Below are positions 7,924-19,668 of a stretch of 56,213 bases of DNA, in pieces. The stretch is from a virus, in IMG/VR virus record IMGVR_UViG_3300044980_000094, positions 1 to 56,213 of that record. One strand, 5' to 3'. The position numbers and the translations under genes are program-made. Below the pieces are notes generated by a model. The model was given only the letters and a program-made list of their open reading frames with translations. It was not told the DNA's origin and ran no database searches. Every line of letters starts with the position of its first letter. Position 1 is the first letter of the stretch.

Positions 7924-9482
7924 ATAGCCCATTTGTGCCAACCCCAGAGCAGCAGGCCATCGTAGATGCCGCGAGCAATCGCCATTCGTTAATGATCCAA
8001 GCCTATGCTGGTTGTGCCAAGACGACGACCCTAGCATTGGCAGGGGGGAAGATTAAAGTCCCAGGCCTGGCCCTAGCATTCAACAAATCCATCGCGCAGG
8101 AGTTGGAAAAAAGATTCGAGCCCAATTTCGCCGTGCGGACTATGAACGGGGCCGGATTTGCGGCTCTGCGAAGACAGTTCAGCAGGGTCACGAACTGGGA
8201 AATCGACAACAAGAAGAACGGCAAGATTGTGACAGCAATGGCGAAGGAGAGGAAGATAGCCCTGGCCAGCAGCGACTGGCAAGCAGTAGTGGCCTTGGTC
8301 GGCGCGGCGCAGAATGCTGGGTTAGTGCCTCGGAGACAGGGCCAGGGCCTAGTGGACGATGACTTCAGGGTCTGGGAAGACCTTGGGGATGGCCTAATGC
8401 TGCATCGGGACGACATGGGGCTATATGCTGAATTAGCCTCGACCGCCCTGGCGCGTAGTAATGAATTGACAACTCAGGGCAGGATTAGCTTTGACGACCA
8501 GATCTACTACCCGGTGGCCTTTGGGGCCGAGTTTACCCGCTATCCAGCAGTACTAGTCGATGAGGCCCAAGATCTCAATGGGCTCAATCACGAAATGATA
8601 AGGCGGAGCCTGAGACCAGATAGCAAGCTCGTGGTTTGCGGGGACCCTTTGCAGAGCATATATGCCTTTCGTGGCAGCGTTAACGAGTCGATGAAAAAAA
8701 TGCTGGGGCTGCGAAATGAATGGGAGCATCTGGCATTGAGGGTCACGTTCCGCTGCCCGAGGATAGTGGTGCGACGGCAGCAGACTCATGCGCCTGGGTT
8801 CACAGCAGCGGCGGGGTGCAGGGATGGCCTTTGGCAAAGACTAGGCAGGGCCGAGGACCAATTGAGCTGGAACCGGCAAGACATTCCCCAAATCGGCACC
8901 GTGGCTGTGCTTTGCCGCAATAATGCCCCATTGCTGGGGCTTGCGTTCAAACTCTTAGCCCAGAGAATCGGCGTCGTCATGCTGGGCCGAGACCTCGGTA
9001 AGGGCCTAGTGGGGCTCTGCAGAAAGATCGAACCAGTCGGAAGTACAAGTGCGGCCACATTCGCGGCAAAGCTCGATGCCTGGGCGGAGAAAGAGATCTC
9101 ATTAGCCGAGGCTAACGGGCTAGATGCTAATGTGGAATCCATATGGGACAGGGCGGGCTGTATCCGGACTGTGATTGGTAGCTGTGACCCAAGAACTGTC
9201 GATGACATATGTGCGCAACTGGAGGCCCTATTTGCTCGCGAGACTGGGCTAGTAACTCTGTCCTCGATCCACAAGGCTAAAGGCCGTGAGTGGGATTGTG
9301 TAATCCATCTCGACCCATGGCGACTGCCTAGCCGCCAAGCCAAGGATGCCGCCCTACTGGGCAATTTGCGGCCAATGCAGCAGGAGAGGAACTTACTGTA
9401 TGTCTGCGAGACTAGGACGAGGAATTGGCTCATTGAGGCAAATCTGGCAGACTTTGCAAGGGGCAAGGCCATGGTTGATTAG
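7920..9482 (+). CDS. UvrD/Rep-like superfamily 1 DNA helicase
   Basis: 520 aa. SF1A motifs appear in order: Q motif (PTPEQQAIV, 8-16), Walker A QAYAGCAKTTT (27-37), motif II VLVDEAQD (211-218), motif III GDPLQSIYAFRG (241-252), motif IV TFRCP (276-280), motif V SSIHKAKGREWD and motif VI NLLYVCETRTR near the C-terminus. Walker A has AKT in place of the usual GKT. The protein is shorter than UvrD (720 aa), lacking most of the accessory 1B/2B subdomains. It likely unwinds DNA at the phage fork or in recombination. It starts the replication block. Confidence 0.85.
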   Translation: MNSPFVPTPEQQAIVDAASNRHSLMIQAYAGCAKTTTLALAGGKIKVPGLALAFNKSIAQELEKRFEPNFAVRTMNGAGFAALRRQFSRVTNWEIDNKKNGKIVTAMAKERKIALASSDWQAVVALVGAAQNAGLVPRRQGQGLVDDDFRVWEDLGDGLMLHRDDMGLYAELASTALARSNELTTQGRISFDDQIYYPVAFGAEFTRYPAVLVDEAQDLNGLNHEMIRRSLRPDSKLVVCGDPLQSIYAFRGSVNESMKKMLGLRNEWEHLALRVTFRCPRIVVRRQQTHAPGFTAAAGCRDGLWQRLGRAEDQLSWNRQDIPQIGTVAVLCRNNAPLLGLAFKLLAQRIGVVMLGRDLGKGLVGLCRKIEPVGSTSAATFAAKLDAWAEKEISLAEANGLDANVESIWDRAGCIRTVIGSCDPRTVDDICAQLEALFARETGLVTLSSIHKAKGREWDCVIHLDPWRLPSRQAKDAALLGNLRPMQQERNLLYVCETRTRNWLIEANLADFARGKAMVD

Positions 9483-9509
9483 ACCAAGCGTGGCCTAGGC
9501 CCATTGGCC

Positions 9510-9538
9510 TTGACCACAATCTCCCGCCCGCCCATAAT
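9510..9538 (+). promoter_or_regulatory. Sigma70-like promoter before the replication operon
   Basis: TTGACC (9510-9515), a 17-base spacer and CATAAT (9533-9538): each box matches consensus at five of six positions. It sits in the 80-base gap between the helicase and the gene at 9563 and points at the replication/recombination genes. Host RNA polymerase is the probable user, since no phage polymerase is encoded. Confidence 0.6.
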
Positions 9539-9562
9539 CCCCCTTCACCCCGAGCCTCCGCG

Positions 9563-10063
9563 ATGCCCCGCACAATGCCCCTTACGATCTCATTCTACGA
9601 GTTCTCAATCTCAAAACCCTACCACGAGGGCTTTGCGATCTCGCAGGCCGAGGCGCAGATATTGAACACCGCAAAGCGAGACGCCCTGGCGGCCCAAGGG
9701 GCCAAAGAACTGGCCAAAATGCGCCCTCAGGGCGAGCAGGGGCTGTTGAGCAGCCAACAGCTTGAGGCCCTGACACTTTTGATTGCGGACCTGGACATGC
9801 AATTCGCATTCAAATTGCGTCCAAATCCGCGCCCGCGCAGTGGGACACTGAATCAGGAAATCCAACTCGTGGCTATGGAACGCGTCGAGGCCGAGGCGAG
9901 GAAATTAGGGCTTAAGCTCAGCTCGCAGCAGTTCGAGGCCGCAGTGCAGGAATGGCGCGCCGATGGGGCGATCATTGGCGAGGCTAGGAGGAGATTCGAG
10001 GAAAGGCTCAAAATCAACACCATGCCTTTGAGTGAACTCTTTGGAGAGCAGCCCGGTGGCTGA
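9563..10063 (+). CDS. Hypothetical replication-block protein
   Basis: 166 aa, helical, with a basic FKLRPNPRPRSGT segment in the middle and a Glu-rich helix (VAMERVEAEARKL). Not recognised. It lies just behind a promoter, with an in-frame ATG at 9575 as alternative start. Its stop overlaps the next gene by eight bases. Confidence 0.6.
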   Translation: MPRTMPLTISFYEFSISKPYHEGFAISQAEAQILNTAKRDALAAQGAKELAKMRPQGEQGLLSSQQLEALTLLIADLDMQFAFKLRPNPRPRSGTLNQEIQLVAMERVEAEARKLGLKLSSQQFEAAVQEWRADGAIIGEARRRFEERLKINTMPLSELFGEQPGG

Positions 10064-10373
10064 GGCTAGCCAACAGGGCATGGGTATGGCCCTGGTGGCC
10101 CTGGCGGCCCCAGAGGCCAACTCCTGGCCTCTGCTCACCGACGATGACTTCATGGGGCTGCTTTGGCAGGCCCTCGGGAGCCCCTATGGGCTGCTAGTCC
10201 AAGCCAGCAACCCCGATGCATTCCGCCAGCGCTGCTACGTCCTGCGACGCAACAGCCTAGACGAAAGGCTCAAGGACTTGACATTTCGCGGCAGCCCATT
10301 TACTAGCGGTAATCTTTGCATTGTCAAACAATCTGCCATGATGCCAAAGAGCGAGACCAAAAAGCATGTCTAA
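10056..10373 (+). CDS. Hypothetical protein
   Basis: 105 aa. The central part (LLTDDDFMGLLWQALGSPYGLLVQASNPDAFRQRCY, in adjoining pieces) looks like a small alpha/beta fold. Its place between other replication-block genes suggests a DNA role, but none is recognised. GTG 10056 is preferred because GGAG (10043-10046) lies nine bases before it; a GTG at 10032 is possible. Confidence 0.55.
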   Translation: MAEASQQGMGMALVALAAPEANSWPLLTDDDFMGLLWQALGSPYGLLVQASNPDAFRQRCYVLRRNSLDERLKDLTFRGSPFTSGNLCIVKQSAMMPKSETKKHV

Positions 10374-10635
10374 GCGAACCGAGAAGCCAACTGTCGCCAG
10401 GCATTTGAAACTCTATGAAGAGGACTGGCTGTTTCTGTGTGAGCATTATGGGCCAGATAGTCCGACCAAATACGGCCCAGGGGCTGTGGTAAGAGAATTG
10501 CTCCATGCGCGGATTAAGGCCATTAAGGCGACAATGACTCGGGCCGTTGAGCACTCACAGGTCGAGGACCAAGCCCAAGTGAGCGAGCAACTGATTGCCA
10601 AGATGGAAGCCCAGGCACGGGGGCAGCAGCCATGA
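10366..10635 (+). CDS. Hypothetical small protein, possible ribbon-helix-helix
   Basis: 89 aa. Residues 8-50 (V.RHLKLYEEDWLFL... then VVRELLHARIKAI) could form a beta strand plus two helices as in Arc-type DNA-binding proteins; this is weak. The C-terminal 35 residues are a Gln/Glu-rich helix. Overlaps its neighbours by eight and four bases. Confidence 0.5.
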   Translation: MSKRTEKPTVARHLKLYEEDWLFLCEHYGPDSPTKYGPGAVVRELLHARIKAIKATMTRAVEHSQVEDQAQVSEQLIAKMEAQARGQQP

Positions 10636-14255: not shown

Positions 14256-15767
14256 ATGCCAATCCAAAATACATATCAGCGCGTTCCTCTTGAACAAATC
14301 GCCATTGCGCGAGATGCGCGGCAGAGGCGAGACATTGCCCTGGACGCGAACTTTGTCGGTTCGATCAAGAGGCATGGTGTGCTGGTGCCGATAATTGTGG
14401 GGCCAAATAGCGAGGCAGCAATCAGCAGTAGCGCGGGCGTGGTCCTGCCGTGGCTGCTGATTGCTGGCGAGCGCAGGCTCGAGGCCTCGCGTCAATGTGG
14501 CTTTGCGGACATTCCTGTGCGATTCGCCTCGGAATTGACTCTAGTCGAGCGCCAGCTCTTCGAGCTCGAGGAAAACGTCAAGAGACGCGAACTGCGCTGG
14601 CAGGATGTTTGCCTCTCTGTGGCTAGGATCCATTCCCTACAGCGAGGGCTGGACCCCGACTGGCAGCGAGCCCAGACCGCCGAGTTTTGCGCCATTGATC
14701 CCAGCGCAGTCACGCATTATCTGACAATCTTCGAGGCTTGGGACGACCCGTCCGTCCAAGCCGCTGGGACATATCGGGAGGCATACAATCTGCTGCTGCG
14801 CCGAACCCAACGAGCACAAGGAGTGGCGTTGCAAGAATTGCTGGACTGGACCGAGCCCCAGCAACAGCCAGCCAGCAACAGCCAGCCAGTAGCGATGCCA
14901 GCAGCAATGGCCAGCAGCGAAGCCGCTTCGACAGAAGCACCAGTCGAGAGTGGATTACCAAGAACTGCGACCGGCCCTAGTCCCAGCCCTACTGCCACTG
15001 CTCCCAGCTCCCCGATTCTCTGCCTCGACGCCGTTGAGTGGATGAAGACATACAGTGGCCCCAAATTCAATCTTCTCCACTGCGACTTCCCTTATGGAAT
15101 CGGCCTGTTCAATTCCAACGGAATCCGCTCTGGTCCACAAAGGAGCCAAATGGGCCGAGATTCTTCCTCCAGCGAAGGTTACGAGGACGAGCCAGAGTAT
15201 TTCCAACTCCTTGTCGAAACCCTGGCAGCGAATCTTAATCGATTCTTTTCAATTCAGGGCCATATCATGTTCTGGTTCTCGAACAAATGGGAGATCGAGG
15301 CACGGGTGCGTGCCAAGTTTGCCGAGTTGGCCCCGAGCATTTCGTGGAGTCGATTTCCACTGATCTGGCTCAAATCTGATAACGCTGGAATAGCCGCGAG
15401 TCCGCAATATGAGCCGAGACATATTTACGAGACCTGCCTGCTGGGCTCGCAAGGCAAAAGGCCGATTGTGCGGATCGTCAGCGATGCATACAGCGCGCCA
15501 ACGGACAAGTCCATCCATGTGAGCGCCAAACCGGAGCCGATGCTAAGGCATTTCATGACGATGCTAGTTGACGAGTCCACCTCGCTGCTCGATCCAACCT
15601 GCGGCAGCGGAACGGCCCTTCGAGCAGCGGAATCCTTGGGCGCTTCTCGCATCTTGGGCTTGGAGAAAGACCCCCAGATGGCCGAACAGGCACGACGGGC
15701 ACTCGAACTTGAGCGCGCAAAGCGCCGGGCTGCGAAGACCCTCCGATCGGCCCCGCTGGATTTCTAG
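14256..15767 (+). CDS. ParB-like nuclease domain fused to a DNA methyltransferase
   Basis: 503 aa. Residues 5-160 are ParB-like, with the GERRLEAS box at 71-78. A Gln/Pro/Ala/Ser linker spans about 195-250. The C-terminal half is an amino-methyltransferase: motif IV as DFPY (277-280) and the SAM-binding motif I as LLDPTCGSG (444-452), in the order IV then I of the beta class. It should methylate adenine-N6 or cytosine-N4 in phage DNA, probably against host restriction. The tail ends Pro-Leu-Asp-Phe, one of six such endings here. ParB-methyltransferase fusions are known in phages. Confidence 0.85.
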   Translation: MPIQNTYQRVPLEQIAIARDARQRRDIALDANFVGSIKRHGVLVPIIVGPNSEAAISSSAGVVLPWLLIAGERRLEASRQCGFADIPVRFASELTLVERQLFELEENVKRRELRWQDVCLSVARIHSLQRGLDPDWQRAQTAEFCAIDPSAVTHYLTIFEAWDDPSVQAAGTYREAYNLLLRRTQRAQGVALQELLDWTEPQQQPASNSQPVAMPAAMASSEAASTEAPVESGLPRTATGPSPSPTATAPSSPILCLDAVEWMKTYSGPKFNLLHCDFPYGIGLFNSNGIRSGPQRSQMGRDSSSSEGYEDEPEYFQLLVETLAANLNRFFSIQGHIMFWFSNKWEIEARVRAKFAELAPSISWSRFPLIWLKSDNAGIAASPQYEPRHIYETCLLGSQGKRPIVRIVSDAYSAPTDKSIHVSAKPEPMLRHFMTMLVDESTSLLDPTCGSGTALRAAESLGASRILGLEKDPQMAEQARRALELERAKRRAAKTLRSAPLDF

Positions 15768-15769
15768 CC

Positions 15770-16495
15770 ATGCCAGCAGGCTCCATCGTAGCCCTATTCG
15801 ACATGACTGGATATTCGGTCCGCGATTGGGCACTCGTAGGCGAGACCTGTTATTGTCTCGATATGTATAACGACGGCAGACAGGAGCAATTCCCATCCGG
15901 TGGCTCAATTACATACCTATATTGGGAGGCCTTGGACCCAACGGCCCTAGGCCAGATCGCAGCCCTCAAACCCAAGTTCCTGTTCGCATTCCCGCCTTGC
16001 ACGGACTTGGCCGTGAGCGGTGCTGCACATTTTGAGTCCAAACGAGCAGAGAATCCGAGCTTCCAAGACGAGGCCCTCTATTTGGCTTTAATTGCGCCGA
16101 GCCTCGGCAAGCGTCTGGGGATTCCGTGGTTTGTGGAGAACCCAGTCGGGACGCTCTCCACCCTATGGGGCAAACCGGATCATATTTTTGAGCCTTGGGA
16201 GTTCGGAGGCTACCTGCCAGCCAGCGACACGCATCCAAAATGGCCAGAATACATCGAGGCCCGCGATGCGTATCCCAAGACGACCTGCATTTGGAGCGGA
16301 AATGGTCTCAAATGGCCCGAGCGCAGACCAGTAGAGCAGACCTGCATAGTGAGCAAGAATGGAAAGAAATGGAGTAAACAACAGGCCAATCTCGGGGGCA
16401 AGAGTTTGAGGACGAAACAGATCCGCTCAGCGACTCCGAGGGGATTCGCAAGGGCGATTTTCGAGGCCAACTATGCCAGCCAGCAGCCAAGATGA
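15770..16495 (+). CDS. Cytosine-C5 methyltransferase-like protein
   Basis: 241 aa. FPPCTDLAVSGA (74-85) carries the Pro-Cys catalytic motif of C5-cytosine methyltransferases (Cys77), and VENPVG (122-127) corresponds to the ENV motif. The SAM-binding N-terminus is short (VALFDMTGY). This short phage type is related to Dcm enzymes but lacks a clear target-recognition domain, so activity is uncertain; it may modify cytosine or a nucleotide. It lies between another methyltransferase and the polymerase genes. Confidence 0.7.
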   Translation: MPAGSIVALFDMTGYSVRDWALVGETCYCLDMYNDGRQEQFPSGGSITYLYWEALDPTALGQIAALKPKFLFAFPPCTDLAVSGAAHFESKRAENPSFQDEALYLALIAPSLGKRLGIPWFVENPVGTLSTLWGKPDHIFEPWEFGGYLPASDTHPKWPEYIEARDAYPKTTCIWSGNGLKWPERRPVEQTCIVSKNGKKWSKQQANLGGKSLRTKQIRSATPRGFARAIFEANYASQQPR

Positions 16496-16551
16496 CCGTG
16501 ACAGCCAGCAACCCAACCTTCGCCCTGCGCGGCCAAGCGATGGACTTCTGA
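16492..16551 (+). CDS. 19-residue peptide ending MDF, coupled to the polymerase gene
   Basis: The frame runs from an ATG overlapping the methyltransferase stop (ATGA, 16492-16495) to a TGA overlapping the polymerase start (TGATG, 16549-16553). The product ends Gln-Ala-Met-Asp-Phe, the same hydrophobic-Asp-Phe ending found on five longer proteins here. Exact overlaps on both sides and the shared ending argue that it is a real microprotein or at least a translational coupler for the polymerase. Nothing else is known. Confidence 0.5.
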   Translation: MTVTASNPTFALRGQAMDF

Positions 16552-17735
16552 TGACCCAGCCAACAAGTCAGCCAGCAGGCCAGCTGGCCGTCCATAGAGC
16601 CTTATCCCCATTTACCGCCCTGAGTGGCCCCTATGACGCCAAGATATTACTCGTCGGCGAAGCCTGGGGCGAAACTGAGGCCGAGTTCGGCCGTCCATTC
16701 GCCGGGGCTAGTGGGCGAGAACTATTCTCGATGTTGAGCGAAGCCACAGGGCATGAGCCAGCCTTGGCTTCTCATTGCCTTGCCGCGCATGGATATGAGT
16801 GGCTGAGGCGAAGAGAGCAGTGGCTGGCCGAGGCCAGCATCGCCATGACCAACGTGCTTGCCCTGAGGCCACAAGGCAACAATTTGGCCTCGCTCTGCAG
16901 GACTAAACCAGAACTCAAATCCCGGGGCCTTGTCCCCGACCGGCCCGAGATCATCCCAGGCAAATATCTGCACCCCAGATACCAGCCCGAACTGGATAGA
17001 CTCCAAGCCGAAATTGCTGCCATTAAGCCCAACATTGTGGTTGCACTGGGTAATACTGCCTGCTGGGCTTTAGCCAATCGAACCAATATCGGCAGCATTC
17101 GTGGAGCTATCAGCCCAAGCCTGTATGGCCCTAAACTTTTGCCGACCTATCATCCTGCGGCCATGATGCGCGTCTGGTCTTGGCGGCCGATCATAATCGC
17201 CGATCTAATCAAAGCCTGGCGTGAGTCAAAGTGGCCGGAAATCCGCCGCCCCGAGCGGGAGATACTAACTAGCCCCACGATTGAAGAGGTAGAGGCTTGG
17301 ACTGCTAGGACATTGGCGAAGCCGCCAAGGTTGCTGGCCAATGACATCGAAACCGCCCGAGGCTTTATCACAATGATGAGCTTCGCCGCAAGCCCCCAGG
17401 ACGGAATCGTCATTCCATTTGCAAGCCTGCAGGCCCCAAATGGCTGCTATTGGCCGACACAAGCCCAAGAGGAGCGGGCCTGGGCTTGCATATGCGCCCT
17501 GCTCAGTAGCCCAATTCCCAAACTCTACCAGAATGGCATGTATGATTTGCAATACGAGGCTTGGCGCATGCGTCTGCCGGTTCGCAATGTGGCTGAGGAC
17601 TCTATGCTGCTGCATCATAGTATCATGCCGGAAATGCTTAAGGGCTTAGGTTTTTTGGGCAGCATTTATAGCCAAGAACCGGCCTGGAAACTAATGCGGC
17701 TACACAAGGCCGACACGGATAAACGAGACGAGTAA
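16551..17735 (+). CDS. DNA polymerase A fragment 1: UDG-like plus partial 3'-5' exonuclease
   Basis: 394 aa. Residues 32-205 are a uracil-DNA-glycosylase-fold domain (GEAWGETEAEFGRPFAG, 36-52; HPA, 201-203), as in phage SPO1-type polymerases. Residues 255-394 begin a 3'-5' exonuclease: Exo I as DIE (265-267) and Exo II as N328..D332. The reading frame stops after KRDE, before Exo III. Exo III (YCGLD) and the polymerase domain lie in the separate gene at 18124, so the two products must assemble to make a working exonuclease. Confidence 0.85.
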   Translation: MTQPTSQPAGQLAVHRALSPFTALSGPYDAKILLVGEAWGETEAEFGRPFAGASGRELFSMLSEATGHEPALASHCLAAHGYEWLRRREQWLAEASIAMTNVLALRPQGNNLASLCRTKPELKSRGLVPDRPEIIPGKYLHPRYQPELDRLQAEIAAIKPNIVVALGNTACWALANRTNIGSIRGAISPSLYGPKLLPTYHPAAMMRVWSWRPIIIADLIKAWRESKWPEIRRPEREILTSPTIEEVEAWTARTLAKPPRLLANDIETARGFITMMSFAASPQDGIVIPFASLQAPNGCYWPTQAQEERAWACICALLSSPIPKLYQNGMYDLQYEAWRMRLPVRNVAEDSMLLHHSIMPEMLKGLGFLGSIYSQEPAWKLMRLHKADTDKRDE

Positions 17736-17761
17736 CTGCGAACGCACTATGGAGCTCCAAT

Positions 17762-18124
17762 ATGTTCTCATATCTTGCTAGTCCGTATTCACACGAGGCT
17801 AAATCTGTCCGCGAGGATCGATTCAGGGCTGTCGAATGTGCTTGGGTCTGGCTAATGCGCCAGCAAAAATGGACCTATTCTCCGATCGTCCATGCGCATG
17901 CAGCCGCAAAGCAATACGAGATGCCGACAGATTTTGCCTTTTGGCGCGCATACAACGAGGCCATGCTAGCCAGCAGCCATGGCCTGATTGTGCTGACCTT
18001 GCCCGGCTGGCAAGACTCCAAGGGTGTCACGGCAGAGATTGAATTTGCGCTCGCACGCAAATTGCCCATCGACTACCTTGCCGCGCAGGGCTGGGGCAAA
18101 TTCTCTTGGACCGGACAATTCTAA
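17762..18124 (+). CDS. DUF1937 (nucleoside deoxyribosyltransferase-like) protein
   Basis: 120 aa. It begins MFSYLASPYSH and shows the family pattern RF.AV..A...LM...W..SPI.H.H, F...YNEAML, L.LPGW..S.GV.AEI.FA. DUF1937 is related to nucleoside 2-deoxyribosyltransferases and is common in phages; it may act on nucleotide pools or be a sensor of nucleotides. GGAG seven bases before ATG gives it its own ribosome site. It sits precisely between the two polymerase halves and overlaps the second by one base (TAATG). Confidence 0.8.
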   Translation: MFSYLASPYSHEAKSVREDRFRAVECAWVWLMRQQKWTYSPIVHAHAAAKQYEMPTDFAFWRAYNEAMLASSHGLIVLTLPGWQDSKGVTAEIEFALARKLPIDYLAAQGWGKFSWTGQF

Positions 18125-19668
18125 TGCCCATTGTCAAAACTCATGAGCTAACAACCCATACCCCGCTGGCCCAATTCGACTCCGACCAAATCTACTGCGG
18201 ACTCGACTCTTGTCTTACATTAGAAATCTTCGAGTCCATCCAGACAATCTATGGCGCTAGCGGAGTCCCTCAGGACTGGCGGGGCATTTATTCCTTCGAG
18301 CGTGCCTTGCAGGCGCCATACTATGACCTCATGACTCGGGGCTTTCGCGTCGATGGCTGGGCGAGGCAGGAAGCCATCCAGTCCCTGCGAGAACGTATCT
18401 GCACTATCCAACAGGTGCTGGACCAGCTATCCACAGCGACGCAGGGCAGCCCGGTTAATCCACGTAGCCAGAAGCAGTTGCAGTATCTGTTCTACACCGT
18501 ATTGGCGCTGCCGGAATTGTGGATCAGCATCAAGGGCGAACGCAAGCTCTCAATGGGCCGGGAAGTGCTGGAAAAACTCCACGAGCGATATTTATATTCC
18601 AGGCCATTTGTGAACTGCATCCTGACCATTCGCGATCTCGCGAAGCAATTGGAGGTATTCGAGTCCAAAATTGACTCAGATGGCCGATTCAGAGCGAGCT
18701 ATAACATCGCCGGGACTGAAACTGGTCGGCCATCGTCGAGCGAAAATGCATTCGGCACTGGCCGCAATGCCCAGAATATCGCACCCAATTTGCGTCACGT
18801 CTTTGTGGCGGACCCGGAGCATGTTCTAGTTGTTGTTGACCTCGAGCAGGTGGAGGCCCGTGATGTCGGATTCTTTTGTGGGTGCCTTTTCGGTGAGTGG
18901 GGATTTCTTGACGCCTGCGAATCTGGCGACCTTCACACGAATAATGCTAAGAGAATTTGGCCCGAGCTTGGCTGGACCGGAGATCGAAAGGCTGATAAAA
19001 AAATTGCAGAACAGAACTTCTACAGGGATTTCAGCTACCGAGACATGGCAAAACGAGGAAGCCATTTGTCGAATTACATGGGGACGGCCTGGACCGCTGC
19101 TAGGTCGCTCAAGTTGCCACTTGCGATTATGGAGGATTTCCAGGCTCGCTACTGTCGAGGCGACCCCAAGCGTGGGATCGAGCCCGCGTATCCGTGCATT
19201 CCCCGCTGGTGGCGCTGGGTCGCAGAGCAACTCCAGACTACTCGCCAGCTCGTGACCCCGTTTGGCCGCCGCAGACACTTTTTCGGACGCCCCGGTGACG
19301 ATACCACACTGCGAGAGGCCATTGCGTTTCTGCCCCAGAGCACGACGGCGGATCGGATGAATCTTGGCCTATGGCGGGTCTGGCGTCACGAGCCCCGAGC
19401 CCAATTACTGGCTCAAACCTATGACTCGATTACTTTTCAGGTCAGCCAAGATGACAATATCGAGGACTGTATTGGGAATGTATTGCACCTGCTCGGGGTG
19501 GAACTGTTTGGGCCAGCGCCGGATTATCGCCACTACGTCGTGCCTGGGGAGGCCAAATGGGGCTGGAACTGGGGGCCACAGAGCGAGCACAATCCCGATG
19601 GGCTGAGGAAATGGTCTCCGAGCCAACTCCTGCCGGCTCGAGCTAACGGCATGCAGAGAATGGTCTAG
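18124..19668 (+). CDS. DNA polymerase A fragment 2: Exo III motif plus polymerase domain
   Basis: 514 aa. Exo III is YCGLD (Tyr24, Asp28), followed by LTLEI. The polymerase domain has GTETGRPSSSENAFG and QNIAP, motif A VVVDLEQVEARD, motif B SHLSNYMGTAW with upstream KRG, and motif C as YDS where most relatives have HDE or HDS. The metal-binding aspartates of motifs A and C are present, so polymerase activity is expected. It needs the upstream fragment for proofreading. The start overlaps the DUF1937 stop. Confidence 0.85.
   Translation: MPIVKTHELTTHTPLAQFDSDQIYCGLDSCLTLEIFESIQTIYGASGVPQDWRGIYSFERALQAPYYDLMTRGFRVDGWARQEAIQSLRERICTIQQVLDQLSTATQGSPVNPRSQKQLQYLFYTVLALPELWISIKGERKLSMGREVLEKLHERYLYSRPFVNCILTIRDLAKQLEVFESKIDSDGRFRASYNIAGTETGRPSSSENAFGTGRNAQNIAPNLRHVFVADPEHVLVVVDLEQVEARDVGFFCGCLFGEWGFLDACESGDLHTNNAKRIWPELGWTGDRKADKKIAEQNFYRDFSYRDMAKRGSHLSNYMGTAWTAARSLKLPLAIMEDFQARYCRGDPKRGIEPAYPCIPRWWRWVAEQLQTTRQLVTPFGRRRHFFGRPGDDTTLREAIAFLPQSTTADRMNLGLWRVWRHEPRAQLLAQTYDSITFQVSQDDNIEDCIGNVLHLLGVELFGPAPDYRHYVVPGEAKWGWNWGPQSEHNPDGLRKWSPSQLLPARANGMQRMV

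What the first reader, a model, noticed from the sequence alone, without database searches (positions are those of the whole stretch)
16551..19668. Family A DNA polymerase split inside its proofreading domain by a DUF1937 gene
The upstream gene holds the UDG-like domain and Exo I and Exo II (DIE, N...D), and stops after KRDE. Exo III (YCGLD) and the polymerase domain start the gene at 18124. Between them sits a full DUF1937 gene with its own ribosome site and a one-base overlap with the second half. The insertion is too short beyond the gene (under 40 bases) for a self-splicing intron core, and no intein motifs are seen. A working exonuclease would require the two products to assemble, and the inserted nucleotide-related gene may have moved in as a cassette.
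Basis: partly seen in the sequence, partly recalled or inferred. Interest (0 to 1): 0.8.

Follow-up and report, generated by a model that had tools for sequence, protein, structure and literature searches.

The report
Two-gene phage polymerase with cargo slot
In a large group of bacterial viruses the DNA-copying enzyme is made as two separate proteins, cut inside its error-correcting site, and the gap between the two genes acts as a parking place for many different small genes, of which the one in this window is only one example.

Summary
A UDG + 3'-5' exonuclease + family A polymerase is split between Exo II and Exo III. The halves tile the Klenow fragment (N half: chain residues 15-123; C half: from 171) and PHROG phrog_17 (552-785; 809-1231), with nothing lost. 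A complete DUF1937 gene lies between them.

The split is neither private nor caused by DUF1937. All closest IMG/VR relatives holding both halves, plus the cultured Caulobacter phage Kuura (112 distinct sequences in all), have it at the same loop. They form one clade (100/100); an intact-gene sister clade is also 100/100. The gap runs from nothing (stop and start touch) to 2.8 kb and holds about 160 ORF clusters; deoxyribosyltransferase-like genes are the commonest recognised kind.

Exo I and II residues are invariant in 108/108 N halves and Exo III in 113/113 C halves, so the two chains most likely assemble into one proofreading enzyme (inferred). One member of the intact clade is split again at the same loop by an HNH endonuclease ORF, a plausible snapshot of the origin.

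Split phage polymerases are known. New here, as far as I could search, are the cut inside the proofreading site, its clade-wide fixation and the cargo slot.

The parts
16473..17735 (+). N half: UDG domain plus Exo I and Exo II (start may be 16551)
   Evidence: PF03167 E 1.9e-19; phrog_17 552-785; Klenow chain 15-123
16626..17183 (+). UDG domain
   Evidence: PF03167, residues 52-237; type-4 UDG solved structures
17343..17351 (+). Exo I, D-I-E
   Evidence: D and E invariant in 108/108 N halves
17532..17546 (+). Exo II, N...D
   Evidence: N and D invariant in 108/108 N halves
17685..17732 (+). W-K and conserved end of the N half (..DTDKRDE)
   Evidence: W and K 108/108; tail mostly K-x-acid-acid
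17736..18123 (+). cargo slot between the two halves (388 bases)
   Evidence: gap 0 to 2.8 kb in relatives, varied genes
17762..18124 (+). DUF1937 gene, nucleoside 2-deoxyribosyltransferase-like
   Evidence: PF09152 E 9.7e-15; phrog_355 E 2.7e-11; solved relative 1t1j E 3.8e-8
18124..19668 (+). C half: Exo III plus family A polymerase domain
   Evidence: PF00476 E 3.7e-21; phrog_17 809-1231; Klenow chain from 171
18124..18192 (+). conserved new start of the C half (MPIVKTHEL..)
   Evidence: pattern M-x-x-I-x-T-x-x-L in the clade
18193..18207 (+). Exo III, YCGLD
   Evidence: Y and D invariant in 113/113 C halves
18379..19455 (+). polymerase domain
   Evidence: PF00476 match, residues 86-444

Best explanation
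The gene for an ancestral UDG-exonuclease-polymerase was broken once, in a loop of the exonuclease domain between Exo II and Exo III, at the base of a large group of phages. The two products, encoded in one run of genes, most likely dock into one enzyme whose proofreading site is shared: Exo I and II residues from the first chain, Exo III Tyr and Asp from the second (inferred). The split has stayed fixed, the new chain ends have become conserved, and the gap between the two genes has become a slot in which small genes come and go; DUF1937 is this phage's current occupant. The break probably began with an HNH-type endonuclease gene landing in the loop, as seen in a relative (inferred).
For: Halves tile phrog_17 and Klenow without loss. 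Same break in 112 distinct sequences, gap about 0 to 2.8 kb; no-insert cases L098 (TAGcATG), L178 (TGATG), L076 (2 bases). Split clade and intact clade each 100/100; fewest changes split/intact = 2. Catalytic D, E, N, D in 108/108 N halves and Y, D in 113/113 C halves, at median pairwise identity about 46-47%. Conserved new tails. Kuura, with the same split, forms plaques, and a BamHI digest verified its assembly (PMC9959647). In the intact relative L193 (mean pLDDT 92.7) the break maps to a loop of lower confidence (blocks 341-360: 85, 72) just before the Exo III helix 361-388. L195, inside the intact clade, has an HNH ORF (phrog_3377 E 8.8e-28) at the same loop. Cargo changes at least 13 times (DUF7768) and 7 times (DUF1937) while split/intact changes 2 times.
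Against: No assembly, activity or complex structure has been shown; the complex could not be predicted (monomers only; a single-chain reading of L098 was not accepted). The HNH origin rests on one relative and is not a reconstruction of the original event. Cargo ORFs were called mechanically. Invariant catalytic residues show selection, not that the two chains meet.
Confidence: 0.8

Rival explanations
1. The halves are rejoined by splicing: an intron removes the slot from the RNA, or split inteins join the proteins.
For: Introns and inteins are common in phage polymerase genes; intein-like insertions do occur in the polymerase domain of L007, L112, L125 and L138.
Against: No Rfam match at the break. 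In L098 and L178 there is no intervening sequence to splice, only a stop and a new start. The N half stops 13-20 residues after W-K in nearly all members, with no intein sequence.
Confidence: 0.04
2. Proofreading has been lost or uncoupled: the C half is a polymerase without exonuclease, and the N half acts on its own, mainly as a uracil glycosylase.
For: No complex has been shown; the UDG domain is a free-standing activity in other organisms.
Against: All Exo I, II and III residues are invariant in both halves over more than 100 sequences, including Exo III, which would be useless on the C half alone.
Confidence: 0.1
3. The DUF1937 gene itself moved into an intact polymerase gene in a recent ancestor of this phage and split it.
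For: It is the only gene in this window's gap; Mel-JY34 carries a DUF1937-like gene next to its intact polymerase.
Against: The split is clade-wide, with other genes or nothing in the gap; DUF1937 is scattered, at least 7 changes for 9 loci.
Confidence: 0.03
4. The separation is an assembly or sequencing artefact.
For: Reads were not available.
Against: 112 distinct sequences, several with different inserts, and the cultured phage Kuura with a digest-verified assembly.
Confidence: 0.01

Closest known systems
Split family A DNA polymerase of OM43 phages MEP401/MEP402 and most group I relatives (PMC10580990)
   Same: Family A polymerase encoded by two ORFs with a small gene between; widespread in a phage group; inserted ORFs not recognisable as known gene products
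   Different: There the break is inside the polymerase domain (first ORF holds PF01612 and the N-terminal part of PF00476); here it is inside the exonuclease active site, with a UDG domain in front, and the cargo is highly varied
Split gene 43 (43A/43B) of T4-like Aeromonas phages 25 and 44RR (PMC2988022)
   Same: Phage replicative polymerase in two chains; 43A and 43B of phage 25 copurify and have polymerase activity; a seg endonuclease (phage 25) or an untranslated insert (44RR) between
   Different: Family B polymerase; no varied gene slot reported
Genes-in-pieces NrdA of phage Aeh1, split by mobE (PMC2988022)
   Same: Homing endonuclease insertion splits an essential enzyme; two chains give a functional enzyme
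   Different: Ribonucleotide reductase; the endonuclease is still in place
Intact UDG-exonuclease-polymerase of Microcystis phage Mel-JY34, ctMlz233 and jumbo phage PaBG (PMC7412058)
   Same: Same domain order
   Different: One continuous gene
Fractured genes with split inteins (Dassa et al. 2009, cited in PMC10448857; content from own knowledge)
   Same: Phage-related genes broken with a gene between
   Different: Those halves carry split inteins that rejoin the protein; none seen here

Membership tests
Family A DNA polymerase with 3'-5' exonuclease (PHROG phrog_17) | polymerase domain with motif residues | tested here: met
   PF00476 E 3.7e-21; motif A Asp 108/108, motif B Arg 107/107 and Lys 106/106 of rows with a letter there
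Family A DNA polymerase with 3'-5' exonuclease (PHROG phrog_17) | Exo I, II and III catalytic residues | tested here: met
   Invariant across both halves
Family A DNA polymerase with 3'-5' exonuclease (PHROG phrog_17) | single continuous chain | tested here: not met
   Stop at 17735, new start at 18124; so it is filed as a split relative, not as an ordinary member
UDG superfamily, type 4-like | UDG domain with GEA and HP motifs | tested here: met
   PF03167 E 1.9e-19; G of GEA 103/108, H of HP 102/108
Genes-in-pieces enzyme (split chains that assemble) | two ORFs together equal one ancestral gene | tested here: met
Genes-in-pieces enzyme (split chains that assemble) | chains assemble and are active | not testable with these tools
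   inferred from residue conservation only
Genes-in-pieces enzyme (split chains that assemble) | homing endonuclease at the break | tested here: inconclusive
   not in the window; HNH cluster in 6 of 112 slots and an HNH ORF in the independent re-split L195
Self-splicing group I/II intron | intron core at the junction | tested here: not met
   no Rfam match in the window region at E<=1 or in nine relatives at gathering score
Split intein | intein halves on the facing ends | tested here: not met
   N half ends 13-20 residues past W-K in nearly all members; C half starts about 20-30 residues before Exo III; no room for intein halves
DUF1937 / nucleoside 2-deoxyribosyltransferase-like | family match | tested here: met
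DUF1937 / nucleoside 2-deoxyribosyltransferase-like | enzymatic activity | not tested
   no assay; a D-S-K-G-x-x-x-E stretch is present, its significance is from own knowledge only

The most novel reading that the evidence does not exclude
The break is an adaptive two-subunit design: the conserved new tails form a docking interface that allows proofreading to be switched on or off by loading the UDG-exonuclease chain, and slot proteins of the deoxyribosyltransferase type act with, or bind to, the assembled polymerase to clean its nucleotide supply.
Probability: 0.1. Interest if true: 0.85.

Novelty: new variant of a known kind. Interest (0 to 1): 0.62.

Why it matters
If the halves assemble, this is a replicative polymerase whose proofreading active site has been shared between two proteins across a large phage group, a natural test of how an essential enzyme survives being cut. 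It makes the path from endonuclease insertion, to stable split, to reuse of the gap as a gene slot directly testable, because intact, newly re-split, empty and loaded states all exist in related phages. It also warns annotators: in Kuura the exonuclease half is listed only as a hypothetical protein, so proofreading would be scored as missing.

Tried and rejected
Intron: Rfam on the window region (E<=1) and on relatives gave nothing at the break; two tRNAs in the L138 slot were the only hits. Split intein: no intein-like ends at the break. The ~1 kb insertion in the L007 polymerase domain, first taken for an intron, is an in-frame intein-like insertion, as in L112, L125 and L138. The N-half single-sequence scan of viral contigs found nothing; the profile scan did. 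Folding a fused L098 chain through a four-letter codon was not accepted by the tool; an intact relative was folded instead. Literature on DUF1937: none found. DUF1937 as cause of the split: rejected by the tree. Assembly artefact: rejected.

Full report
What is there. The window is a 56 kb virus contig. On the + strand lie, in order: an ORF at 16473-17735 with a UDG domain and Exo I and II; a DUF1937 gene at 17762-18124; and an ORF from 18124 to 19668 with Exo III and a family A polymerase domain. The first and last together equal one protein: PHROG family phrog_17 is matched at 552-785 and 809-1231, and the Klenow fragment at chain residues 15-123 and from 171. An alignment with intact relatives shows no missing residues; the N half runs about 14 residues past a W-K pair, the C half begins about 20 residues before Exo III.

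Relatives. A search with the C half alone gave six contigs at 61-79% identity; the break is seen at the same place in all of them, though L003 holds only the end of the N half. Among loci that hold both halves, every near relative is split at the same loop: 154 loci scored as split, 112 distinct sequences after removing duplicates and ctLwi270, which is split elsewhere. Intact genes appear only in distant phages such as Mel-JY34 and ctMlz233 and their kin L181-L193. The gap runs from about nothing (L098 TAGcATG, L178 TGATG, L076 2 bases) to about 2.8 kb (L101).

Tree. A careful tree of 49 C-half or equivalent sequences, with the linker left out, puts all split sequences in one clade and all intact ones, with L195 nested among them, in another, each at 100/100. 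A larger quick tree of 124 rows agrees in outline. The fewest changes are 2 for split versus intact, but 13 for DUF7768, 7 for DUF1937, 6 for HNH and 5 for the MazG-like cluster. So the split is old and stable and the cargo is young and changing. The no-insert members L098 and L178 are nested, so cargo has probably been lost there (inference; the counts cannot tell gain from loss).

Independent re-split. L195 belongs to the intact clade, yet its gene is interrupted between W-K and Exo III by a 145-residue ORF that matches HNH endonuclease families (phrog_3377 E 8.8e-28). This is the same loop, hit a second time, and shows one way the break can start. Whether the ancestral event was the same is inference.

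Why the halves should work together. Exo I D and E and Exo II N and D are invariant in 108 of 108 N halves; Exo III Y and D in 113 of 113 C halves, although median pairwise identity is 46-47%. Both ends next to the break have their own conserved patterns: the N half ends in W-K plus usually 13-16 residues, most often K-x-acid-acid, and the C half starts M-x-x-I-x-T-x-x-L. In the AlphaFold model of the intact relative L193 (mean pLDDT 92.7) the break maps to the least confident loop of the exonuclease domain, just before the Exo III helix; the model matches Klenow-type structures. The window's C half alone is modelled with mean pLDDT 92.1. Caulobacter phage Kuura has the split with two other genes in the gap, forms plaques, and its assembly was checked by BamHI digest (PMC9959647).

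The slot. In 92 of 95 loci the N-to-C gap exceeds 150 bases, against 23 of 95 for the next gap, C half to DUF3987. Mechanical ORF calling finds 240 ORFs of at least 40 residues in 162 clusters; some will be spurious. Of 149 scanned, 26 match phrog_355 (nucleoside 2-deoxyribosyltransferase), 18 DUF7768, 9 DUF1937, 6 HNH_3; rarer cases include MazG, HAD/PNKP and Tad3; L138 has two tRNAs. DUF1937-type hits number 11 in slots (80.7 kb) and 2 in flanks (811 kb), DUF7768-type 23 and 0. The queries came from slot genes and the loci are related, so the enrichment is suggestive, not a clean test. A role in cleaning the nucleotide pool, beside the UDG domain, is inference.

Comparison with what is known. 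Split phage polymerases are not new: MEP401-type phages have a family A polymerase in two ORFs with a small ORF between, broken in the polymerase domain (PMC10580990), and T4-like phages 25 and 44RR have a split gene 43; the products of phage 25 copurify with activity (PMC2988022). Intact UDG-exonuclease-polymerases are described in PaBG (PMC7412058). I found no description of a break inside the exonuclease site or of the cargo slot, but only open-access papers could be searched.

Verdict. Observation confirmed. Interpretation partly right: two products must assemble, but DUF1937 is a passenger in an old slot, not the cause. A new variant of a known kind, interest 0.62. Shown: split, clade, conservation, cargo turnover. 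Inferred: assembly, docking tails, HNH origin, nucleotide-pool role.

Noticed in passing
L007:6610-7641; L112 about 8750-9573; L125 about 9382-10254; L138 about 9631-10524: In-frame insertions with intein-like ends (Cys at the start, H-N or G-N before Thr or Ser at the end) at three sites in the polymerase domain of split relatives.
   Followed up: partly
L014:2878-3138: ctLwi270 polymerase is split at another place, after Exo III, with an NrdR-type zinc-ribbon ORF between (PF22811 E 1.8e-14); compare the partial DnaJ zinc domain reported inside HMO-2011-type polymerases (PMC9038755).
   Followed up: partly
L011:5731-6285: Vibrio phage VS-ABTNL-3 polymerase is split inside the polymerase domain (near window C residue 220) with a 184-residue ORF of unknown function (phrog_8380) between.
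   Followed up: partly
L138:7878-8037: Two tRNA genes lie inside the slot between the polymerase halves.
   Followed up: no
window 19063-19065: The motif B position equal to Klenow 762 is His in all 106 split relatives with a letter there; the motif C His is Tyr in 18 of the sequences, the window included.
   Followed up: no
L009:2359-2754: In Mel-JY34, whose polymerase is intact, a DUF1937-like gene lies just upstream of the polymerase instead of inside it.
   Followed up: partly
slot ORFs of alignment A3: One slot ORF matches Tad3, a Thoeris inhibitor (PF25185 E 2e-37), so counter-defence genes also pass through the slot.
   Followed up: no
window 14256-15767 and 15770-16495: Single ORF with a ParB N-terminal-like domain and a DNA methyltransferase domain upstream of the polymerase; the next gene is a methyltransferase (phrog_757) of a type that sits inside the slot in L170.
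   Followed up: no
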